Assembly: GCA_026400815.1 (NCBI GenBank)
Contig: JAPLOI010000066.1
Location: 1-34,218, forward strand
Direction of reading: 5' to 3'
Length of the DNA: 34,218 bases
DNA from: Alphaproteobacteria bacterium
GTDB taxonomy: Bacteria; Pseudomonadota; Alphaproteobacteria; Acetobacterales; Acetobacteraceae
Under the pieces are notes generated by a model. The model did no database searches. It was not told where the DNA came from and worked only from the letters and a program-made list of their open reading frames with translations. Positions 6,124-20,321 of this stretch are shown piece by piece. Position numbers and translations under genes: made by a program. Position 1 is the stretch's first letter. Every line of letters begins with the position of its first letter.

Positions 6124-6996
6124 CTAGGCCCCCTGCTCCAGCGCCCGGATCATATGCGCCCGTAGCCTGTCCGCCGGTGCCGAGAGCGGCTCGGCGGCCA
6201 GCAGCGCGATCTCGGTATCCGACAGGGCCGGCATGCTTCCGCCATCCAGCGCCACCAGGCCCGGCGGCACCATGACCTTCGGCAGCACCGTCATGCCCAG
6301 CCCCGCCCGCACCGCGGCGAGCGAACCGGCGAGCGAGCCGCAGGTATAGGCCACGCGCCAGCGCCGCCCGGCGCGGTCCAGGGCATCCACGGCGCGCTTG
6401 CGATAGACGCAGGGCGGCGGGGAGACGACGAGCGGCAGGGCGCGGCCATCCTGCGGCGGGCCGGCGGGGCCGGCGACCCAGACCAGCGGCTCCCGCCACA
6501 CGCGCACGCCACCGGCCAGGCGGGCATCGGCGGCGGGTTCGCGCTTCACCAGCACGATGTCGAAGCGGTTGTCGCGGAAGGCATCCAGCAGGTTCAGCGT
6601 CAGGTCGCAGGTGACTTCCAGCACCACCTCCGGATAGGCCTTCGCAAAGCGGGCGAGCACGCCGGGCAGGTGGGAGGTGGCGAAATCCTCCGGCGTGCCG
6701 AGGCGGACGAGGCCGGCGAGGTGCGGTTCGGCGACCTTGGCGACCATTTCATCGTTCAGCGCCAGCATGCGGGTGGCGTAGCCCAGCAGGGTCTCGCCGC
6801 GGGCGGTGAGCTTCACGCTTTTGGTGGTGCGGTCCAGCAGGCGCTGGCCAATGCCGTCTTCCAGGCGTTTGATCTGCAAGGAAATAGTGGATTGCGTGCG
6901 CAGCAGGCGCTCGGCGGCGCGCGAGAAGCTGCCGGTTTCCGCCACGGTGGCGAAGGCGCGCAGCAGGTCCAGGTCGAGTTGCGGCGTGGCGGGCAT
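6124..6996 (-). CDS. LysR-family transcriptional regulator
   Basis: This 290-residue protein has an N-terminal winged helix-turn-helix (about residues 8-66: LLRAFATVAETGSFSRAAER, then STISLQIKRLEDGIGQRLLDR) and a C-terminal periplasmic-binding-like effector domain (AGLVRLGTPEDFATSHLPGV onward), as in LysR proteins. Helix 3 reads RTQSTISLQIKRLED. It is divergent from the isocitrate dehydrogenase gene. The classic LysR arrangement suggests it controls that gene, itself, or both. A perfect dyad, TCATTG-N7-CAATGA, lies immediately upstream of its start codon at 6997-7015. The effector is unknown. Confidence 0.93.
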   Translation of the reverse strand: MPATPQLDLDLLRAFATVAETGSFSRAAERLLRTQSTISLQIKRLEDGIGQRLLDRTTKSVKLTARGETLLGYATRMLALNDEMVAKVAEPHLAGLVRLGTPEDFATSHLPGVLARFAKAYPEVVLEVTCDLTLNLLDAFRDNRFDIVLVKREPAADARLAGGVRVWREPLVWVAGPAGPPQDGRALPLVVSPPPCVYRKRAVDALDRAGRRWRVAYTCGSLAGSLAAVRAGLGMTVLPKVMVPPGLVALDGGSMPALSDTEIALLAAEPLSAPADRLRAHMIRALEQGA

Positions 6997-7015
6997 TCAT
7001 TGTCCCAGTCAATGA
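6997..7015. promoter_or_regulatory. Perfect dyad, candidate LysR operator
   Basis: TCATTG at 6997-7002 is the exact reverse complement of CAATGA at 7010-7015, with seven bases between. The dyad lies in the short divergent region between the LysR gene and isocitrate dehydrogenase and contains T-N11-A spacings, as LysR binding sites do. Its position against the LysR start codon would suit autoregulation. No binding data can be read from sequence. Confidence 0.4.
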
Positions 7016-7094
7016 GTGAAGTTTGAACTATCAATTTCAGATATTGACCGCTACTCCCTAGATGCAAGGCACCGCAACGAACGGAGCCGGTGCC

Positions 7095-8597
7095 ATGACG
7101 CTGATGACCCCTCTCTCCACCCCCCTGGCCCATGCCGAACACGACGCACAAAGCTTCCGACCGGTGCCGGTGGCCGTGGCCATGGGCGACGGCATCGGCC
7201 CCGAGATCATGCGCGCCAGCCTCGCCGTGCTGCAGGCCGCCGGCGCCGCGCTGGAGATCCGCGAGATCGCGCTGGGCGAGGCGGTGTACAAATCCGGCCA
7301 CAGCAGCGGCATCGCGCCCGGGACCTGGGACGTGCTGCGGGCGACGAAGCTGCTCTACAAGGCACCGATCACCACCCCACAGGGCGGCGGCTACAAAAGC
7401 CTCAACGTGACGCTGCGCAAGTCCTTGGGCCTGTTCGCCAATGTGCGGCCCACCGGCGCCTATGCCCCCTTCGTCGCCACCAAGCATCCCGGCATGGACG
7501 TGGTGATCGTGCGCGAGAACGAGGAGGATCTCTACGCCGGGATCGAGCACCGGCAGACCGACGAGGTGTACCAGTGCCTCAAGCTCGTCTCCCGGCCCGG
7601 CACGGAGAAGATCGTGCGCTTTGCCTTCGAATACGCCCGGCGCAATGGCCGGCGGAAGGTGTCCTGCTTCTCCAAGGACAACATCATGAAGCTGACGGAC
7701 GGTCTGTTCCACAAGACCTTCGATGCGATCGCCAAGGAATACAAGGAGATCGAGACCGATCACTGGATCATCGACATCGGCGCGGCGCGGCTGGCGAACA
7801 ATCCCGGGCAGTTCGACGTGATCGTCACCGGCAATCTCTACGGCGACATCATCAGCGATATCGCCGCCGAGATCGCGGGATCGGTGGGCCTCGCCCCCTC
7901 GGCGAATATCGGCGCGCACGGGGCGATGTTCGAAGCGATCCACGGCTCCGCGCCGCCGCTCGCGGGCAAGGACGTGGCCAATCCCTCCGGCCTGCTGCTG
8001 GCCGGCGTGATGATGCTGGTGCATGCGGGCCAGCCCCGGGTGGCGGAACGGGTGCACAATGCCTGGCTGCGCACGATCGAAGACGGGGTGCACACCGCCG
8101 ACATCCCGCAGGATACGCCCGGCGCACAGCGCGTGGGCACCAAGGGCTTCGCCCAGGCAGTGATCGCCCGGCTGGGGCTGGAGCCGCGCCACCTCGCCCC
8201 GGTGCGCTACGGCGAGGCCGGCCCCGCGATCGCTGTGCCAGAGGCGGCGCCGACCGTACCGGCGGAAAAGCGCACCGTGGGGGTGGATGTGTTCCTGCAC
8301 TGGTCCGGCGGCACGCCCGACAACCTCGCCACCCGGCTGCTGCCGGTGGCGGGCGGCATGGAACTGGCGATGATCACCAACCGTGGCGTGAAGGTATGGC
8401 CGCAGGGCCTGGCGGAAACCTTCTGCACCGACCATTGGCGCTGCCGCTTCCTGGCGCCCACGGGCGGCGATTTGGGCCATGTGGACATCGTCGCCCTGCT
8501 GGCGCGGCTCGCGGGCGCGGGGCTGGACTTCATCAAGACCGAGCATTTGTGCAGCTTCGGCGGCGTGGCAGGCTACTCCCTGGGCCAGGGCCAGTAG
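7095..8597 (+). CDS. icd: Isocitrate dehydrogenase with C-terminal extension
   Basis: This enzyme catalyses oxidative decarboxylation of isocitrate to 2-oxoglutarate with NAD(P). Family motifs are present: VAMGDGIGPEIM near the N-terminus, SLNVTLRKSLGLFANVRP (substrate loop with Ser, Asn and Arg), VIVRENEEDLYAGIEHR, FSKDNIMKLTDG (catalytic Lys), DVIVTGNLYGDIISDIAAEI and HGSAPPLAGKDVANPSG. About 150 extra C-terminal residues form an added domain, as in Thermus- and Rickettsia-type isocitrate dehydrogenases of roughly 480-500 residues, not the 416-residue E. coli type. The ATG at 7095 is chosen for its GGAG at 7083-7086; an upstream in-frame ATG exists at 7062. Cofactor preference is not clear. 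It is divergent from a LysR gene and followed by the NHL and SbtA genes. Confidence 0.88.
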   Translation: MTLMTPLSTPLAHAEHDAQSFRPVPVAVAMGDGIGPEIMRASLAVLQAAGAALEIREIALGEAVYKSGHSSGIAPGTWDVLRATKLLYKAPITTPQGGGYKSLNVTLRKSLGLFANVRPTGAYAPFVATKHPGMDVVIVRENEEDLYAGIEHRQTDEVYQCLKLVSRPGTEKIVRFAFEYARRNGRRKVSCFSKDNIMKLTDGLFHKTFDAIAKEYKEIETDHWIIDIGAARLANNPGQFDVIVTGNLYGDIISDIAAEIAGSVGLAPSANIGAHGAMFEAIHGSAPPLAGKDVANPSGLLLAGVMMLVHAGQPRVAERVHNAWLRTIEDGVHTADIPQDTPGAQRVGTKGFAQAVIARLGLEPRHLAPVRYGEAGPAIAVPEAAPTVPAEKRTVGVDVFLHWSGGTPDNLATRLLPVAGGMELAMITNRGVKVWPQGLAETFCTDHWRCRFLAPTGGDLGHVDIVALLARLAGAGLDFIKTEHLCSFGGVAGYSLGQGQ

Positions 8598-8659
8598 CCA
8601 CGGGTTGACGCACGGCCGCGCCCGGCGTGCAGTCCCACCTTCAAGCGGGAGAGACTGGC

Positions 8660-9556
8660 ATGTCGAGCGCGGCTGAATCCTTGGAAATCGGGCACGATGC
8701 CCATCGCTACAGCTTCCAGCGCCAATGGGCGAAGCTGCCGCGGCACTGGAGCTTCGGCAGCGCCAACCCCACCGACCGGCCTCCGCGCACGGCGCTGAAG
8801 GGCGCGGTGGCGGGCAATGGCGAGGTGTACGTGCTGTCCCGCAGCGCCCATCCTGTGATGCTGTTCACGCCGCAGGGTGAGTTCATCACCTCCTGGGGTG
8901 AGGGGCTGTATTCCAACTTCGTCCATTCCATCTCGATCGCGCCCAACGGCGACGTGTATGTGATCGATTCCGGCCTGCACGCCATCTTCCACCATAAGCC
9001 CGATGGCACGCTGGTGCGCACGCTGGGCACGCCGGGGATGCCCTCGCCCACCTGGCAGGGCAATCCATTCAACATGCCCACCCACATCGTGTTTCACCCC
9101 AATGGCGACGCCTACGTGTCGGACGGTTACGGCAACAAGCGCGTGCACCGCTTCGCCATGGACGGCACGCACAAATTCTCCTGGGGCGGGCATGGCGAGG
9201 GGCCGGGCCAGTTCTCCCTGGTGCATTTCATCGCGCTCGATGCCCAGGGCCGCATCTACATCACCGATCGCGAGATCGACCGCATCCAGATCTTCGACGA
9301 GGCCGGCACCTGGCTGGCCGACTGGCGCGGCACCTTCGACATGCCGAGCGACATCGCGATCGGCAAGGACGCGATGTATGTCGGCGGGCGCGACGGGCTT
9401 TCGATCTGGAGCCACGACCGCCAGGAGATCATCCGCTGGAAGGCGGATGAGCCCTATGCCGGCGCGTTCAACATCCACGGCGTGTGGCTGGACGCGCAGG
9501 AAAACATCTACCTCGCCCATTTCGACAAGGCGGTGAGCAAGCTCACGCGCATCTAG
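8660..9556 (+). CDS. NHL-repeat beta-propeller protein
   Basis: This 298-residue protein is built of NHL-type repeats: AVAGNGEVYVLSRSAHPVML, SIAPNGDVYVIDSGLHAIF, VFHPNGDAYVSDGYGNKRVH, ALDAQGRIYITDREIDRIQI, AIGKDAMYVGGRDGLSIW and WLDAQENIYLAHFDKAVSKL. This gives about six blades. Sequence style is closest to bacterial homologues of peptidyl-alpha-hydroxyglycine alpha-amidating lyase, but catalytic function cannot be asserted. No signal peptide is seen, so it is probably cytoplasmic. The ATG at 8660 has a GGGAGAG ribosome site at 8647-8653; an in-frame alternative start lies at 8627. The sbtA start is only 7 bases after its stop, so it is very likely the first gene of, or part of, the carbon-uptake operon. 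Confidence 0.8.
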   Translation: MSSAAESLEIGHDAHRYSFQRQWAKLPRHWSFGSANPTDRPPRTALKGAVAGNGEVYVLSRSAHPVMLFTPQGEFITSWGEGLYSNFVHSISIAPNGDVYVIDSGLHAIFHHKPDGTLVRTLGTPGMPSPTWQGNPFNMPTHIVFHPNGDAYVSDGYGNKRVHRFAMDGTHKFSWGGHGEGPGQFSLVHFIALDAQGRIYITDREIDRIQIFDEAGTWLADWRGTFDMPSDIAIGKDAMYVGGRDGLSIWSHDRQEIIRWKADEPYAGAFNIHGVWLDAQENIYLAHFDKAVSKLTRI

Positions 9557-9563
9557 GAGCCGG

Positions 9564-10541
9564 ATGACGATACTGGACCTCGCGGCGGCGAACCTGCTTT
9601 CGCCGCTGCTGCTCTGCTTTGCCCTGGGCGCGCTTGCGGTGCTGCTGCGCAGCGATCTGCGCGTGCCGGAGCCGGTGTTCAACGCGCTGTCGATCTACCT
9701 GATGCTTGCCATCGGGCTGAAGGGCGGGGTGGAACTGTCGCGCCTGCCGCCCTCGGCCTTCGTGCTGCCGGGGCTGGCCGCACTCGGGCTGGGCATGGCG
9801 ATCCCGCTGTGGTGCTACGCGCTGCTGCGCCGGGTTGGCCGGTTCGGGGTGGCGGATGCCGCGGCGATTGCGGCGCATTACGGATCGGTCTCCGCCGTTA
9901 CCTTCGTGGCCGCCATCGCCTACCTGGATGCAACGCGCACGCCATACGAGGGCTACGCCCCTGCCCTGCTGGCGATCATGGAGGTGCCGGGCATCGTGGT
10001 GGCCTTCGCGCTGGCCCGTGCCGGTGGCGCGCTTGGTGGTAGGGGCACGGCAGGCGAGGCGGTGCGGGAGATCCTGTCCGGCAAGAGCGTGCTGCTGCTG
10101 GCCGGCGGGCTGCTGATCGGCGCGGTGGTGGGCGAGGGCGGCTATGCCCGCGTGAAGCCGCTGTTCTCCGACCTGTTCCAGGGCGCGCTGTGCCTGTTCC
10201 TGCTGGAACTCGGCATCCTGGCCGCCGGGCGGCTGGGGGATTTCCGGCGGGTGGGCCCGTTCCTGGCCGTATTCGCCGTGGCGATGCCGGTGCTGCACGG
10301 AGTGCTCGGCGTGGCGGTGGGCCATGCGATCGGGCTTTCCGTGGGCGGGATGACGGTGCTGGGCACGCTCGCCGCATCGGCCAGCTACATCGCCGCCCCG
10401 GCCGCGGTGCGCCTGGCTTTGCCCCAGGCCAATCCGGGCTATTACCTCACGGCCTCGCTCGCCATCACCTTCCCGTTCAACCTCACGCTCGGCCTGCCGC
10501 TCTACAACGCGCTGGCACGCTGGATCGCCGGAGGACCGTGA
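9564..10541 (+). CDS. sbtA: Sodium-dependent bicarbonate permease, SbtA family
   Basis: This 325-residue inner-membrane protein has about ten transmembrane segments. It shows SbtA-family signatures: LMLAIGLKGGVELS, AAIAAHYGSVSAVTFVAA (first conserved half), a central hydrophilic break near residues 155-170, LFLLELGILAAGRLGD, then the mirror-image second half with LGTLAASASYIAAPAAVRLA and LAITFPFNLTLGLPLY. The two inverted halves form the substrate and sodium site in this family. The family imports bicarbonate in cyanobacteria; members in heterotrophs are presumed to do the same. The gene overlaps the PII-like gene by one base (TGATG) and a carbonic anhydrase follows, which strongly supports a role in inorganic carbon uptake. 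Confidence 0.92.
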   Translation: MTILDLAAANLLSPLLLCFALGALAVLLRSDLRVPEPVFNALSIYLMLAIGLKGGVELSRLPPSAFVLPGLAALGLGMAIPLWCYALLRRVGRFGVADAAAIAAHYGSVSAVTFVAAIAYLDATRTPYEGYAPALLAIMEVPGIVVAFALARAGGALGGRGTAGEAVREILSGKSVLLLAGGLLIGAVVGEGGYARVKPLFSDLFQGALCLFLLELGILAAGRLGDFRRVGPFLAVFAVAMPVLHGVLGVAVGHAIGLSVGGMTVLGTLAASASYIAAPAAVRLALPQANPGYYLTASLAITFPFNLTLGLPLYNALARWIAGGP

Positions 10542-10852
10542 TGCAAACCGTGCCCGTCTCGCTGGTAACGATCGTGGCCGAAAAGGTGCTGGCCGCCCGC
10601 CTCACCCACGCCATCCTGGCCGCCGGCGCCACCGGCTACACCATCACCGAGGCGCACGGCGTCGGCTCGCGCGACATGCGCGCCTCCACGCTGGATGGCG
10701 AGAATATCCGCATCGAGGTGCTGGCCGGAGAGGGCGTGGCCGATGCGCTGCTGGAGATGCTGGCGCGCGACTGGTTTCCGCATTACGCCGTGGTCGCCTG
10801 GGCGGCCGAGGTGCGCGTTGTCCGGGGCGAGAAATACGCCGGGCGTGGTTAA
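10541..10852 (+). CDS. sbtB: PII-like protein, SbtB-type partner of SbtA
   Basis: This small protein (103 residues) has the ferredoxin-like PII fold pattern: VSLVTIVAEKVLAARLTHAI (beta1-alpha1), ATGYTITEAHGVGSR leading into a T-loop-like segment DMRASTLDGEN, then IRIEVLAGEGVADALLEMLA and a final strand pair VVAWAAEVRVV. SbtB proteins bind adenine nucleotides and gate SbtA. The start at 10541 overlaps the sbtA stop, implying translational coupling. It lacks the Cys-rich C-terminal tail of many cyanobacterial SbtB proteins, so redox control by that tail is not expected. The assignment rests on both fold and gene order; fold alone would only say PII-like. Confidence 0.82.
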   Translation: MQTVPVSLVTIVAEKVLAARLTHAILAAGATGYTITEAHGVGSRDMRASTLDGENIRIEVLAGEGVADALLEMLARDWFPHYAVVAWAAEVRVVRGEKYAGRG

Positions 10853-10877
10853 TCTGCGTGGCCTGCTGATCCGCTAC

Positions 10878-10899
10878 GCCCGTCCGAAGCAGGACGGGC
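10878..10899 (+). other. Intercistronic hairpin between sbtB and carbonic anhydrase
   Basis: GCCCGTCC (10878-10885) pairs perfectly with GGACGGGC (10892-10899) around a six-base loop. It lies in the 80-base gap before the carbonic anhydrase gene and ends 33 bases before its ATG. No T-run follows, so it is more likely an RNA processing, stability or attenuation element than a terminator. Role inferred. Confidence 0.5.
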
Positions 10900-10932
10900 T
10901 TCGCGGGCAGGACACGAAAGCGGAGTTCCTGA

Positions 10933-11541
10933 ATGGATGGATTGCTGAACGGCTACGCCCGGTTTCGCGCCGGCGCCTGGCCGGAGCGCAAGCGGATGTT
11001 CGAACGCCTGGCGGAACGTGGCCAGGCGCCGCGCGCCATGGTGATCGCCTGCGCCGACAGCCGGGTGGACCCTGGCATGATCTTCGATGCCGGGCCGGGC
11101 GAGCTGTTCGTGGTGCGCAACGTGGCCAACCTGGTGCCGCCCTATGCGCCCGATGGCGCGCACCACGCCACCAGTGCGGCGCTGGAATTCGGCGTGCGGG
11201 TGCTGCGCGTGGGCCATCTGATCGTGATGGGCCACGGCATGTGCGGCGGCATCACCGCCCTCATCCATGGCGGCCCGGAGCAGGCCACCGACTTCCTGAT
11301 GCCTTGGATCAACATCGCCGCCAAGGCCCGCGACCGCGTGCTCGCCTGCGACGACGGCGGCGACCCGCAATTGGCGCTGGAACAGGCGGCGGTGGCCCTG
11401 TCGCTGGAGAATCTGCGCGGCTACCCATGGATCGCGGAACGGCTGGCCGACGGCTCCATGGAACTGCACGGCGGGCATTTCGACGTGCGGCACGGCATCC
11501 TGAACCTGCTGGACCCCGACGGAACCTTCCGGCCGGCTTGA
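10933..11541 (+). CDS. Beta-class carbonic anhydrase
   Basis: This is a 202-residue enzyme interconverting CO2 and bicarbonate. The zinc and active-site set is complete: Cys40, Asp42 and Arg44 in CADSRVDP, then His101 and Cys104 in GHGMCGG. The NVANLVPPY segment and the C-terminal LHGGHFDVRHG are also typical of beta-carbonic anhydrases. There is no signal peptide, so it is cytoplasmic. GGAG at 10922-10925 supports the ATG at 10933. It sits 80 bases after the PII-like gene in the same direction as sbtA. A cytoplasmic anhydrase would equilibrate imported bicarbonate with CO2 for carboxylases, or recapture CO2 from decarboxylations such as the one catalysed by the neighbouring isocitrate dehydrogenase (inference). 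Confidence 0.95.
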   Translation: MDGLLNGYARFRAGAWPERKRMFERLAERGQAPRAMVIACADSRVDPGMIFDAGPGELFVVRNVANLVPPYAPDGAHHATSAALEFGVRVLRVGHLIVMGHGMCGGITALIHGGPEQATDFLMPWINIAAKARDRVLACDDGGDPQLALEQAAVALSLENLRGYPWIAERLADGSMELHGGHFDVRHGILNLLDPDGTFRPA

Positions 11542-11567
11542 GACGGCAGCGCAAGGTAAGGAAAGGG

Positions 11568-11650
11568 AACCGCCAAGACGCCAAGGACGCAAAGAAGGCG
11601 CCAAGGGGGCCTTGGCGTTTCCTTGGCGCTCTTTTGGCGCCTTGGCGGTT
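11568..11650. repeat. Long imperfect inverted repeat (CGCCAAGG type), likely bidirectional terminator
   Basis: The sequence AACCGCCAAGACGCCAAGG at 11568-11586 is mirrored by a right arm ending GGCGCCTTGGCGGTT at 11650. The outer arms match over 16 of 17 bases, and the inner CGCCAAGG / CCTTGGCG pair around 11608-11617 gives a second stem. The unit CGCCAAGG recurs several times within 83 bases. It lies between the convergent carbonic anhydrase and selA genes and touches the selA stop, so it can fold in both transcripts. It probably acts as a two-way terminator, and it resembles dispersed extragenic repeats, though copy number cannot be judged here. Confidence 0.65.
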
Positions 11651-14796: not shown

Positions 14797-15096
14797 TCAA
14801 GCCGGCGGTGCGAAGCCTTCCACCATCACCACGTCGCCGCTGCTCGCTCTTTGCCGCAGGGCGATCAGCGGGGCGTATTCCGGGCTGTGGTAGAACGTCT
14901 TCAGCCCCGCCATGGTCGGGAATTCCAGCACCACCAGCCGCTTGAAGGGCGAGGTGCCCTCCACCGTCTCCATCGCGCCGCCACGCACGCGATAGGTGCC
15001 GCCATATTGCGCGATCACGGCTGGCACCTGCGCGCGATATTCCTCGAACATCGCCGGGTCGGTCACGTCGATGTTCGCGATCAGAAATGCGGGCAT
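14797..15096 (-). CDS. DUF1330 family protein
   Basis: This 99-residue protein is of the dimeric alpha/beta-barrel type. It starts MPAFLIANIDVTDPAMFEEY and carries the family's YGGTYRVRGG and LVVLEFPTMAGLKTFYHSPE segments, typical of DUF1330 proteins. They have a ferredoxin-like fold related to small monooxygenases, but no settled function. The upstream reading frame is open further, but the ATG at 15096 matches the family's N-terminus. It follows oppF-like by 5 bases and precedes the iron alcohol dehydrogenase, so it is part of the same operon. Confidence 0.88.
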   Translation of the reverse strand: MPAFLIANIDVTDPAMFEEYRAQVPAVIAQYGGTYRVRGGAMETVEGTSPFKRLVVLEFPTMAGLKTFYHSPEYAPLIALRQRASSGDVVMVEGFAPPA

Positions 15097-15101
15097 GGCG
15101 C

Positions 15102-16201
15102 CTACCCCGCCTCCACCTTCGCCTGCGCCCGCTTTTCGGCATACAGCGCGAGGCGCTTGGCTGCGTTGGGAGCCGTGGCACTCACGCCGATCGCCTCGCT
15201 GGCCGGCGGCAGGCTCTCGATGTTGTGGCACGCGGTCATGTGCCCGGCGGTGATGCCGCCCACCGATGGGTTGCGCAGCACCGGATCCTCCACCTTGCAG
15301 ATATCGGTGGCCCAGGCGCAGCGTGTGTGGAAGCGGCAGCCGCTGGGCGGGTTCATCGGGCTCGGCACGTCGCCGCCCGGGATCTGCCGGGCGGTCTTGC
15401 GGTGCGGATCGGGCCGCGGGATCGCCGAGAGCAGCGTGCGCGTGTACGGATGCAGCGGGGCGAGGAACAGCTCGTCCTTCGGCGCCAACTCCACGATCTT
15501 GCCGAGGTACATCACCGCCACCCGGTCCGCCATGTGCTTCACCACGGCGAGGTCATGGGCGATGAACAGGTACGAAAGCCCCAGCCGTTCCTGCAAATCC
15601 TTCAGCAGGTTCACCACCTGCGCCTGGATAGACACGTCCAGCGCCGAGACCGGCTCGTCGCACACCACCAGCGCCGGCTCCACCGCCAATGCGCGGGCGA
15701 TGCCGATGCGCTGGCGCTGGCCGCCGGAGAATTCATGCGGGTAGCGCTGGGCGTGATAGGGGGCGAGGCCCACCAGCCCCAGCAACTCGTTCACCCGCGC
15801 CTTGCGCTCCGTGGCGTTGCCGATCTCATGAACCAGCAGCGGCTCCTCCAGGATATCCCCCACCGTCATGCGCGGGTTCAAGGAGGCGAACGGGTCCTGG
15901 AACACGATCTGCATACGCCGGCGCAGCGCACGCAGCGGCGCGCCATCCATGGCGGTGATGTCCTGGCCCTCGAACCACACCTGGCCCGTGGTCGGCTCGA
16001 TCAGCCGCAGCACCAGGCGCGCGGTGGTGGACTTGCCGCAGCCGGATTCGCCCACCAGCGCCAGCGTCTCGCCGCGCGCCAGCTTGAACGACACGCCGTC
16101 CACGGCGCGCACCGTGCCGACGGTCTTGGCCATCACCAGGCCCTTCTTGACCGGGTAATGCTTGGCGAGGTCCTGGACCTCCAGCAGCGTCACAGGCGTG
16201 C

Positions 16202-16205
<4 letters not shown>
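15102..16205 (-). CDS. Oligopeptide/dipeptide ABC transporter ATPase, OppF/DppF type
   Basis: This 367-residue ATPase energises a peptide-type ABC importer from the cytoplasmic face. Walker [10 protein letters not shown] is at 52-60, the Q-loop is Gln103 in VFQDP, the signature FSGGQRQR is at 159-166, Walker B ends in LVVCDEP at about 179-185, and the H-loop is in FIAHDL. The C-terminal oligopeptide-transporter extension holds Cys residues (CRFHTRC) that in OppD/F proteins can bind an iron-sulfur cluster. Its start overlaps the OppD-like stop by four bases (ATGA). No permease or binding-protein genes are near, so partner proteins must be encoded elsewhere. Confidence 0.93.
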
Positions 16206-18788: not shown

Positions 18789-20321
18789 TCAAAGGGCGAG
18801 TTCGTCTGCCGGCCAGGAGTGCAAGGGACCGAAGCGGGGCGATTTCTTGCTGGTGTGCCGATCCATGCGGTGGAGCACATCGGCAAGGAAACGCAGCCCT
18901 TCCACCACATACGGCCCCTTGTTCAGCATCACGCACTCCGCGCGCTGCGACATTGCGGCATCGGTGGCCTCGGCGCGCGTCGGCAGCCCGTCGCTCACCA
19001 GCGACTCCAGCACCTGCGTGGCCCACACCACCGGCACATGCGCTGCCTCGCAGAGCCACATCATCTCCTCCTGGATTTCCGAAAGCCGCCCAAAGCCAAG
19101 TTCAACCGCCAGGTCGCCGCGGGCGATCATGACCGCAACCGGCCCGCGCGCGCCGGCCCGCACGATCAGCCGCGGCAGATTGCGCACGGCCAGCTGCGTT
19201 TCGATCTTGAGCACGAACGGCAACGGCGCATGTCCCAGCCGGCGGCGGGCAAGTTCGTCGTGCAGCAACTGCACATCCTCCGGCCTCTGCACGAACGAGA
19301 AGCCAACCAGGTCCGCCAGTGCCGCAACAATGTCGAGGTCGGCCAGATCCTTGGCGGTCAGTGGCGCCAGGCCCAACTCGGTGCCCGGGAAGTTCACGCC
19401 CTTCTCGGGTTTCAGGCGCTCGCCCTTGCTCCGGGCACTGAACACCTCCAGCACCACGCGGCGGGAATCGCCCGCGAGAACGCGCGTCCCGATGCGACCA
19501 TCGTTGATCCACACTTCGGCACCGGGCACCAACTTTGCGAGAATGTCCGGAAAGGTGATGGTTGCCGTCACCGTATCCTTCACCTCCGCGTCCTCAACGG
19601 CGCGCACCAGCGCGATCCGGTCGCCGCGAAACAATCGCACGCGATCTGCGGCATGCACGGTCTCGATGCGGCATTTCGGCCCACCGATATCCATCAGGAT
19701 CCGGCATTCGCGTTTCGCCTCGGCTGCGATTGTGCGCACCAGCCCGGCCATCGCCTGCCAGGTCGCGGCATCATCATGGGCGCAGTTGATCCTGGCGCAG
19801 GTCATCCCCGCGTCGACCAACCCGCGCACCAGTGCCGCATCGCTGGCCGCCTCCGTCGGCAGGGTCACCATGATGCGCGTCTTCGGCCCGCCGGGATTTG
19901 TGCCGAACAGGTCGTGCTGGGCCTGATCCAGGGTACGACGGCCCGCCGTGAAGATGCCGGTCGGCGGAAAAGGTGGTGTACCGGCACCGGCAAGCCGCGA
20001 CAGCGTGGCGCACAGCGCATCGAGCGTGGCCCGCACATGCGCCTCGCTGCGCCCCAGGGAGGAGAGACCGAGCATGGCCAGCGTGGATTGCAGGTCGCTG
20101 AGGTCCAGCCGGTGAAGCGCCAGGTAGTCGGCGAGGTTGCGCGAAGCTGGCAGGAAGGCGCGTTCGGTGATGCCGGCGTGCCATTGGCCAAAGATCGCCT
20201 GTGCCGTTTCGTGCACCGTCGTGCGGATCGCCTCGACTTCAGCCAGCAGCGCTCCGGATTCCAGCCTCGCTGCCGGGCCGCGTCGGCCGGTCGGGCCGCC
20301 TGCAGGGCGATTGGCGTTCAT
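18789..20321 (-). CDS. Pyruvate kinase-like protein with N-terminal extension and no C-terminal domain
   Basis: This 510-residue protein has about 140 extra N-terminal residues, then a pyruvate kinase barrel. Landmarks are ARINCAHDD (176-184; usually ARxNxSHG), MDIGGPKCRIET (210-221; usually DLKGPKIRT), KGVNFPG (307-313), FSFVQRPED (341-349), LKIETQ with Lys372 and Glu374, IARGDLAVELG with Asp403, and WATQVLES leading to PTRAEATDAA. The usual MLSGETA loop reads MLNKGP, and the allosteric C-terminal domain is missing. Catalytic Lys and metal ligands are kept, so phosphoryl transfer from phosphoenolpyruvate is possible, but substrate and regulation may differ. It appears to be a single-gene unit. 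Confidence 0.82.
   Translation of the reverse strand: MNANRPAGGPTGRRGPAARLESGALLAEVEAIRTTVHETAQAIFGQWHAGITERAFLPASRNLADYLALHRLDLSDLQSTLAMLGLSSLGRSEAHVRATLDALCATLSRLAGAGTPPFPPTGIFTAGRRTLDQAQHDLFGTNPGGPKTRIMVTLPTEAASDAALVRGLVDAGMTCARINCAHDDAATWQAMAGLVRTIAAEAKRECRILMDIGGPKCRIETVHAADRVRLFRGDRIALVRAVEDAEVKDTVTATITFPDILAKLVPGAEVWINDGRIGTRVLAGDSRRVVLEVFSARSKGERLKPEKGVNFPGTELGLAPLTAKDLADLDIVAALADLVGFSFVQRPEDVQLLHDELARRRLGHAPLPFVLKIETQLAVRNLPRLIVRAGARGPVAVMIARGDLAVELGFGRLSEIQEEMMWLCEAAHVPVVWATQVLESLVSDGLPTRAEATDAAMSQRAECVMLNKGPYVVEGLRFLADVLHRMDRHTSKKSPRFGPLHSWPADELAL

What the first reader, a model, noticed from the sequence alone, without database searches (positions are those of the whole stretch)
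7095..11541. SbtA-SbtB-carbonic anhydrase module coupled to an NHL protein and isocitrate dehydrogenase
Five codirectional genes: icd, NHL propeller, SbtA-type bicarbonate permease, a PII-like gene overlapping it by one base, and a complete beta-carbonic anhydrase. SbtA/SbtB is best known from cyanobacterial carbon concentration. Here there is no RuBisCO or carboxysome gene in the window, and the gene next door releases CO2. A role in anaplerotic carboxylation or CO2 recapture is plausible. The NHL protein, 7 bases before sbtA, is a possible new component.
Basis: partly seen in the sequence, partly recalled or inferred. Interest (0 to 1): 0.72.

Follow-up and report, generated by a model that had tools for sequence, protein, structure and literature searches.

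The report
Bicarbonate-uptake and isocitrate-dehydrogenase gene cluster
A bacterium with no evident CO2-fixing RuBisCO keeps bicarbonate-uptake genes, a carbonic anhydrase and a spare isocitrate dehydrogenase together beside a regulator whose relatives sit by inorganic-carbon genes in other bacteria, while the beta-propeller gene first suspected as a new part looks like an older neighbour.

Summary
The five genes are real and as placed; the reading changes. (1) The NHL propeller is probably no component: 8 of 9 species of the genus hold its orthologue, and in the three of these without sbtA it directly precedes the carbonic anhydrase gene. (2) The icd is a second isocitrate dehydrogenase (IDH): it occurs in exactly the 5 of 9 species with sbtA, while a separate NADP-IDH scores over its cut-off in 8 of 9. 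An IDH gene also lies upstream of sbtA-sbtB in 3 of 80 named sbtA loci: two Meiothermus, one Rhodothermales. Of its 19 closest relatives in 385 Alphaproteobacteria, 16 lie by IDH, sbtA, DAB or PEP carboxylase genes; 0 of 9 LysR loci at 43-46% identity do. The lysR-icd promoter carries one element seen in half of lysR-sbtA promoters and one seen in most lysR-IDH promoters. Best reading: a LysR-controlled inorganic-carbon/2-oxoglutarate gene cluster in a bacterium where only a RuBisCO-like protein was found. Function is inferred, not shown.

The parts
6124..6996 (-). lysR: divergent LysR-type regulator, likely regulator of the gene cluster
   Evidence: LysR Pfam domains; relatives beside IDH, sbtA, DAB or PEPC genes in 16 of 19 class-level matches
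6998..7014 (.). CATTG-N7-CAATG inverted repeat (T-N11-A type), putative LysR site
   Evidence: only exact match in the window (0.08 expected); exact at lysR-icd in 5 of 5 sbtA-bearing species of the genus with five different spacers and in 6 of 12 lysR-sbtA upstream regions
7030..7037 (+). ATCAATTT element (inside TCAAT-N7-ATTGA), putative second LysR half-site
   Evidence: exact in 12 of 14 lysR-IDH upstream regions, 0 of 12 lysR-sbtA regions, 0 of 9 control LysR loci
7095..8597 (+). icd: accessory isocitrate dehydrogenase, TIGR02924/PRK09222 type with C-terminal domain; APPL at the cofactor motif, not the APKY of the Thermus enzyme
8660..9556 (+). NHL-repeat propeller protein; older neighbour of the CA gene, probable passenger
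9564..10541 (+). sbtA: Sbt_1 family, Na+-dependent bicarbonate transporter type
   Evidence: 376.6 bits; 7cye E=1.3e-30
10541..10852 (+). sbtB: PII-like protein without the C-terminal CGPxGC loop
   Evidence: nearest PDB chain 2cz4 (TTHA0516) 4.6e-26, SbtB chains about 7e-9
10853..10932 (.). sbtB-CA gap with a stable hairpin (-41 kcal/mol), 66 bases longer than the 14-base gap in four sister species
10933..11541 (+). beta-carbonic anhydrase
   Evidence: directly after NHL in the three sbtA-less sister species that hold the locus

Best explanation
This is a LysR-controlled inorganic-carbon gene cluster, probably one operon, of an alphaproteobacterium (order Acetobacterales) in which no bona fide RuBisCO was found. 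SbtA brings in bicarbonate with Na+; SbtB, a nucleotide-binding PII-like protein, gates it; the beta-CA equilibrates HCO3- and CO2; and an accessory, probably NAD-linked isocitrate dehydrogenase adjusts flux between isocitrate and 2-oxoglutarate plus CO2. The neighbouring LysR, by analogy with cyanobacterial CcmR, probably senses a TCA-side metabolite such as 2-oxoglutarate and adjusts carbon-skeleton supply (HCO3- for anaplerotic and biosynthetic carboxylases, 2-oxoglutarate for amino acids) when inorganic carbon is short. The NHL gene is carried along because sbtA-sbtB lies inside an older NHL-CA gene pair. Shown here: gene identity, co-occurrence, synteny, recurrence of the regulator's gene neighbours, shared promoter elements. 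Inferred: transport substrate, IDH cofactor and direction, effector, co-transcription, physiology.
For: icd and sbtA are together in 5 and both missing in 4 of 9 genus members (one of the four 68% complete); a separate NADP-IDH is over cut-off in 8 of 9. An IDH of the same type lies upstream of sbtA-sbtB on the same strand in 3 of 80 named loci: L136 and L151 adjacent, L133 with a short ORF between. The SbtA tree puts the window with alphaproteobacterial SbtAs and Meiothermus/Rhodothermales elsewhere, so the icd-sbtA joins look independent on the SbtA side (no supports printed). LysR relatives: 16 of 19 by IDH (8), sbtA (4, one 2.4 kb away), dabBA-PII (1) or PEPC plus dabBA-PII (3), against 0 of 9 loci at 43-46% identity; in the family the 8 best of 17 non-own LysR matches include 7 beside sbtA. 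Promoter elements. Neighbours of sbtA in 80 named loci: SbtB 64, CA 10 within about 1.7 kb, PurK 10, PurE 7, DabA 3.
Against: Only 2 of 4 docked HCO3- ligands of Synechocystis SbtA (S114, S324) are kept; Y140 and S327 are L136 and A277, so the substrate is not certain. No expression, binding or transport data. No icd match in the 18 sbtA loci of the 15 other sbtA-bearing family genomes (L024 has no upstream sequence), and sbtA lies beside icd in 0 of 29 other alphaproteobacterial icd loci read within 1.5 kb (33 such matches). 3 of 19 LysR relatives have no such neighbour within about 5 kb. CATTG-N7-CAATG is exact in 0 of 6 lysR-icd and 0 of 3 lysR-Iso_dh promoters outside the genus (5 of these 9 have it with one mismatch), and genomes without this cluster hold exact sites too (G033 4, G120 1). 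In the LysR tree three controls fall among the linked rows. In the IDH tree the Meiothermus rows lie in the same starred 19-row set as the window. Several rows share a genus. PEPC and pyruvate carboxylase were not searched in the own genome.
Confidence: 0.6

Rival explanations
1. Reductive-carboxylation reading: SbtA and CA feed CO2 to the accessory IDH, which runs 2-oxoglutarate + CO2 to isocitrate as a redox or carbon sink.
For: IDH is listed as a CO2-using enzyme of DIC metabolism in PMC10880623 Table 1 (passages). CO2, made from HCO3- by the CA, is its substrate; a cytosolic CA beside an HCO3- importer makes sense if CO2 is wanted. The IDH is an extra copy.
Against: Aerobic IDH usually runs oxidatively (recalled). 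The window IDH lacks the APKY of the NADP-type Thermus enzyme, which, if it means NAD use, disfavours reduction. No reductive TCA enzymes were looked for.
Confidence: 0.15
2. The Sbt_1 protein here carries another substrate, such as a TCA-type carboxylate, which would explain the IDH link without bicarbonate.
For: Two of four docked HCO3- ligands differ, also in the other 10 SbtAs aligned in A1; linkage to IDH.
Against: Sbt_1 genes of this kind recur by CA, PurK/PurE and DabA, and the same regulator type sits by DAB inorganic-carbon genes; SbtB is kept.
Confidence: 0.14
3. The NHL protein is a true functional component of the SbtA system.
For: NHL is 7 bases before sbtA and lies there in 5 of 5 sbtA-bearing species of the genus.
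Against: NHL precedes CA without sbtA in G033, G119 and G120; it lies on another contig in G103 and G020, which also have sbtA; NHL beside sbtA in 0 of 80 named loci.
Confidence: 0.05
4. Chance or neutral clustering: independent insertions next to one another with no shared function.
For: Two separate blocks (lysR-icd and sbtAB) flank NHL, so two insertion or loss events are needed.
Against: Both blocks are present or absent together (5 and 4 of 9), the promoter element is kept with diverged spacers, and the same gene set recurs around this regulator type in other families.
Confidence: 0.06

Closest known systems
Cyanobacterial sbtA-sbtB with LysR regulator CcmR/NdhR
   Same: SbtA transporter and PII-like SbtB as neighbours; a LysR that represses Ci transporter genes with 2-oxoglutarate and NADP+ as co-repressors (PMC3401165, abstract and outline read)
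   Different: No bona fide RuBisCO found; SbtB lacks the CGPxGC loop; an accessory IDH and a CA in the gene row; 2 of 4 docked HCO3- ligands changed; orthology of the LysR to CcmR not tested
DIC supply systems of non-autotrophs (cytosolic CA; MpsAB)
   Same: Supplies CO2/HCO3- to bacteria that are not autotrophs (PMC8567241, abstract and outline read)
   Different: Uses SbtA-SbtB plus CA together, with a dedicated IDH and a LysR
DIC toolkits of autotrophs (PMC10880623, 12 of 16 passages read)
   Same: SbtA, CA and DIC-accumulating complexes as a toolkit; IDH listed among CO2-using enzymes
   Different: That review treats autotrophs; 'LysR' has 0 occurrences in its main text and no passage shown reports an icd-sbtA gene row
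Thermus isocitrate dehydrogenase (2d1c)
   Same: Aligns over both domains, E=3e-111
   Different: APPL in place of APKY at the cofactor motif; accessory copy beside another IDH

Membership tests
SbtA (Sbt_1, PF05982) | Full-length Sbt_1 domain over cut-off | tested here: met
   376.6 bits vs 27, positions 1-307 of 308
SbtA (Sbt_1, PF05982) | Docked HCO3- ligands S114, Y140, S324, S327 of Synechocystis SbtA | tested here: inconclusive
   S110 and S274 kept; L136 and A277 in place of Y140 and S327
SbtA (Sbt_1, PF05982) | Na+-dependent bicarbonate transport | not testable with these tools
   needs an uptake assay
SbtB | P-II protein encoded beside sbtA | tested here: met
   P-II 56.3 bits; one-base overlap with sbtA; matches SbtB structures at about 7e-9
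SbtB | C-terminal CGPxGC redox loop | tested here: not met
   window SbtB ends VVRGEKYAGRG; the motif is present only in some SbtBs (PMC8352866), so it does not define the family
Beta-carbonic anhydrase | Pro_CA domain with C-x-D-x-R and H-x-x-C | tested here: met
   143.4 bits; CADSR and HGMC
Isocitrate dehydrogenase TIGR02924 / PRK09222 | Score above equivalog cut-off | tested here: met
   648.8 vs 561.35 and 725.7 vs 509
Isocitrate dehydrogenase TIGR02924 / PRK09222 | NADP specificity implied by the PRK09222 name | tested here: inconclusive
   APPL in place of APKY (2d1c) or APDI (NAD-dependent 6lky); what the motif means for cofactor use is recalled
Cyanobacterial CO2-concentrating mechanism | RuBisCO | tested here: not met
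   own-genome search gave one RuBisCO-like protein (KDDH) and one sub-threshold hit; genome 97.55% complete
Cyanobacterial CO2-concentrating mechanism | Carboxysome genes | not tested
   no carboxysome family was searched
CcmR/NdhR-type LysR control of sbtA | LysR gene and conserved operator beside sbtA | tested here: inconclusive
   LysR and shared promoter elements found; orthology to CcmR not tested; binding and effector not testable here

The most novel reading that the evidence does not exclude
A RuBisCO-free carbon-concentrating regulon in Alphaproteobacteria: one group of related LysR regulators governs bicarbonate uptake (SbtA or DAB) together with TCA-linked carboxylation/decarboxylation enzymes (PEPC, accessory IDH), so that inorganic carbon uptake is set by, and serves, 2-oxoglutarate and oxaloacetate supply. 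In the boldest form the accessory IDH runs reductively on CO2 delivered by SbtA and CA.
Probability: 0.35. Interest if true: 0.78.

Novelty: new variant of a known kind. Interest (0 to 1): 0.6.

Why it matters
SbtA-SbtB is studied mostly as a helper of RuBisCO (recalled, and the tenor of the listings). Here it is tied by gene order and co-occurrence to an isocitrate dehydrogenase, and its regulator's relatives are tied to DAB transporters and PEP carboxylase. That turns an open question, what bicarbonate pumps do outside autotrophy and how they are controlled, into a direct test of one regulator, one promoter and one gene cluster. In the held PMC library, the titles and abstract openings listed by my searches (the 4 to 20 best of 4 to 170 hits each) showed no icd-sbtA gene row, and no paper held DabA, LysR and inorganic carbon together (0 papers). 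Most subscription papers are not held, so this is weak evidence of novelty.

Tried and rejected
NHL as a component: rejected by neighbourhoods in relatives. Cyanobacterial-type CCM: rejected for lack of bona fide RuBisCO. Transfer of a whole icd-sbtA-sbtB cassette from Meiothermus-like bacteria: not favoured, since the window SbtA groups with G103 and other alphaproteobacterial SbtAs; the IDH tree does not decide it, as the Meiothermus IDHs fall in the same starred 19-row set as the window (quick tree). Gain versus loss of the two blocks: the NHL tree makes the sbtA-less species paraphyletic (supports as printed include 1.00, 0.99 and 0.64), which favours gain, but acyl-CoA dehydrogenase identities point another way (G119 closest); left open. 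Wider regulon by the CATTG-N7-CAATG pattern: the other two exact sites in the own genome lie inside ORFs by my gene caller. G110: LysR and sbtA lie on different contigs and adjacency was not shown.
Full report
Observation. The five genes are in the sequence as described and their families are firm. A sixth gene belongs to the picture: a lysR, 6124-6996, divergent from icd with 98 bases between the two start codons. The window's family in the tool (label f1) also holds contigs whose lengths match records of Elioraea sp. Yellowstone and Plastoroseomonas arctica, both order Acetobacterales; the genus itself is unnamed.

Genus comparison. Nine genomes of the genus are held. sbtA occurs in 5. The same 5 hold this icd at 90-100% identity; the other 4 (G033, G119, G120, and G121 which is 68% complete) have only 36-40% relatives or none. 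A different NADP-IDH (PRK08299) is over its cut-off in 8 of 9; the miss, G124, is 88% complete. So the window icd is a second IDH. The order lysR-icd-NHL-sbtA-sbtB-CA is complete in L097 and L099 and agrees in the cut contigs of G122 and G123. In G033, G119 and G120 the same place reads acyl-CoA dehydrogenase, WXXGXW-repeat ORF, NHL, CA, selA, with neither lysR-icd nor sbtA-sbtB.

NHL. Orthologues at 60-82% identity occur in 7 of the 119 other genomes surveyed in the family (G033, G119, G014, G020, G055, G111, G103); weaker NHL relatives are common (55 of 120 genomes with any match). Five of these 7 have no sbtA; in G020 and G103 sbtA lies on another contig. Among the 80 named sbtA loci NHL lies beside sbtA in none; two weak hits lie 4-9 kb away (one query). 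The NHL protein is therefore most simply a passenger of an NHL-CA pair.

icd and sbtA across phyla. SbtB follows in 64 of 80. A full-length IDH of the same type (60-62%) lies upstream on the same strand in 3 of 80 (68 of the 80 have more than 2 kb upstream): L136 (93 bases before sbtA) and L151 (117 bases), and L133 with about 0.7 kb and a short ORF between. L133 and L136 are both Meiothermus. In the 18 sbtA loci of the 15 other sbtA-bearing family genomes no icd match was found (L024 has no upstream sequence), and in 29 other alphaproteobacterial icd loci read (of 33 matches) sbtA is not within 1.5 kb. Other recurrent neighbours of sbtA in the 80 loci: PurK 10, PurE 7, LysR 10, CA 10 within about 1.7 kb of the end of sbtA, DabA 3 (one representative each of PurK, PurE and DabA checked by Pfam). 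PurK uses bicarbonate (recalled; PurK assisting PurE is touched on in a passage of PMC10880623). This supports a bicarbonate role outside RuBisCO.

The LysR relatives. In 120 family genomes, 17 non-own LysR matches passed E 1e-60. The best 8 (48-64%) include 7 beside sbtA; G110 could not be shown; the other 9 (44-48%) served as controls. In 385 Alphaproteobacteria, 19 non-own matches passed E 1e-74. Neighbours: this type of icd in 5 (L243-L247), a shorter Iso_dh relative in 3 (L239-L241), sbtA in 4 (L249, L252, L253 adjacent; L251 at 2.4 kb), dabB-dabA-PII in 1 (L242, extended as L281), PEPC on one side and dabB-dabA-PII on the other in 3 (L255-L257, extended as L282, L298, L283); 3 (L248, L250, L254) have none within about 5 kb. 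L239-L241 and L255-L257 come from three genomes of one genus, so events are fewer than rows; the 16 come from 9 families by the tool's labels. Control: the nine loci at 43-46% identity by tblastn, about 7-10 kb each, hold none of the query genes at E 1e-10 (0 of 9). In the LysR tree (FastTree, supports not shown) three of the nine controls (L286, L291, L293) fall among the linked rows, so the linked set is not a clean clade.

Promoter. CATTG-N7-CAATG occurs once in the window, at 6998-7014 (0.08 expected). It is exact between lysR and icd in all five sbtA-bearing species with five different spacers and in 6 of 12 lysR-sbtA upstream regions. It is exact in 0 of 6 lysR-icd and 0 of 3 lysR-Iso_dh regions outside the genus (5 of the 9 have it with one mismatch) and in 0 of 8 of the rest. 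Background is 15 in 873,551 bases of family loci, the sites themselves and overlaps included; the nine genomes hold 0 to 7 exact sites each, also where the cluster is missing. A second element, ATCAATTT (window 7030-7037), is exact in 5 of 5 window-genus, 4 of 6 other lysR-icd and 3 of 3 lysR-Iso_dh upstream regions, in 0 of 12 lysR-sbtA regions and 0 of 9 controls; background 11 in 1,740,448 strand-bases of family loci. The window promoter thus carries both elements. Rows of one genus are not independent, and no binding was tested.

Mechanism. That SbtA, SbtB and CA supply and equilibrate inorganic carbon follows from the families. Caution: two of four docked HCO3- ligands differ. The IDH has APPL where the Thermus enzyme 2d1c has APKY and the NAD-dependent 6lky has APDI; the Meiothermus and Rhodothermales IDHs have APDI, so NAD use is suggested, not shown. 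By analogy, cyanobacterial CcmR, a LysR over Ci transporter genes, has 2-oxoglutarate and NADP+ as co-repressors (PMC3401165 abstract). The best single account is a LysR that matches inorganic carbon uptake to 2-oxoglutarate and oxaloacetate supply.

Literature seen. PMC8352866: whole text in two parts. PMC10880623: 12 of 16 passages. PMC3401165 and PMC8567241: abstracts and outlines. Others: search listings only. No listed title or abstract opening showed an icd-sbtA gene row, and the DabA + LysR + inorganic carbon search found 0 papers.

Verdict. New variant of a known kind; interest 0.6.

Noticed in passing
10853-10932: The sbtB-CA gap holds 66 extra bases and folds into a strong hairpin (-41 kcal/mol); four sister species have a 14-base gap.
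   Followed up: partly
11542-11650: Long near-palindrome rich in CGCCAAGG-like repeats (-54 kcal/mol) between the CA and selA genes.
   Followed up: no
L085:9160-10266 (own genome, contig C55): RuBisCO-like protein of 368 aa with KDDH (canonical KDDE recalled); matches to RuBisCO and MtnW models, all far below cut-offs.
   Followed up: partly
18789-20321: A 510-aa ORF with no counterpart at that place in sister loci L098, L099 and L071; L098 and L071 instead hold an extra gene of 362-364 aa (looks like an acyltransferase) between the counterparts of the window's genes at 14797-15096 and 15102-16205.
   Followed up: no
L282, L283, L298: PEPC - LysR - dabB - dabA - PII in one codirectional row in three genomes of one alphaproteobacterial genus.
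   Followed up: partly
L040 (G115): sbtA in this family member is matched in two pieces with a stop in each: a decaying copy or an assembly error.
   Followed up: no
L153, L167, L172 (Thermus); L197, L199 (Verrucomicrobia): purK (five of five) and purE (four of five) lie near sbtA-sbtB, suggesting bicarbonate supply to purine synthesis.
   Followed up: partly
L074, L075, L076: NHL orthologues in other genera lie by M81-peptidase-like genes (L075, L076; L076 checked by Pfam) or a SelA-like gene (L074), hinting at an unrelated catabolic role.
   Followed up: no
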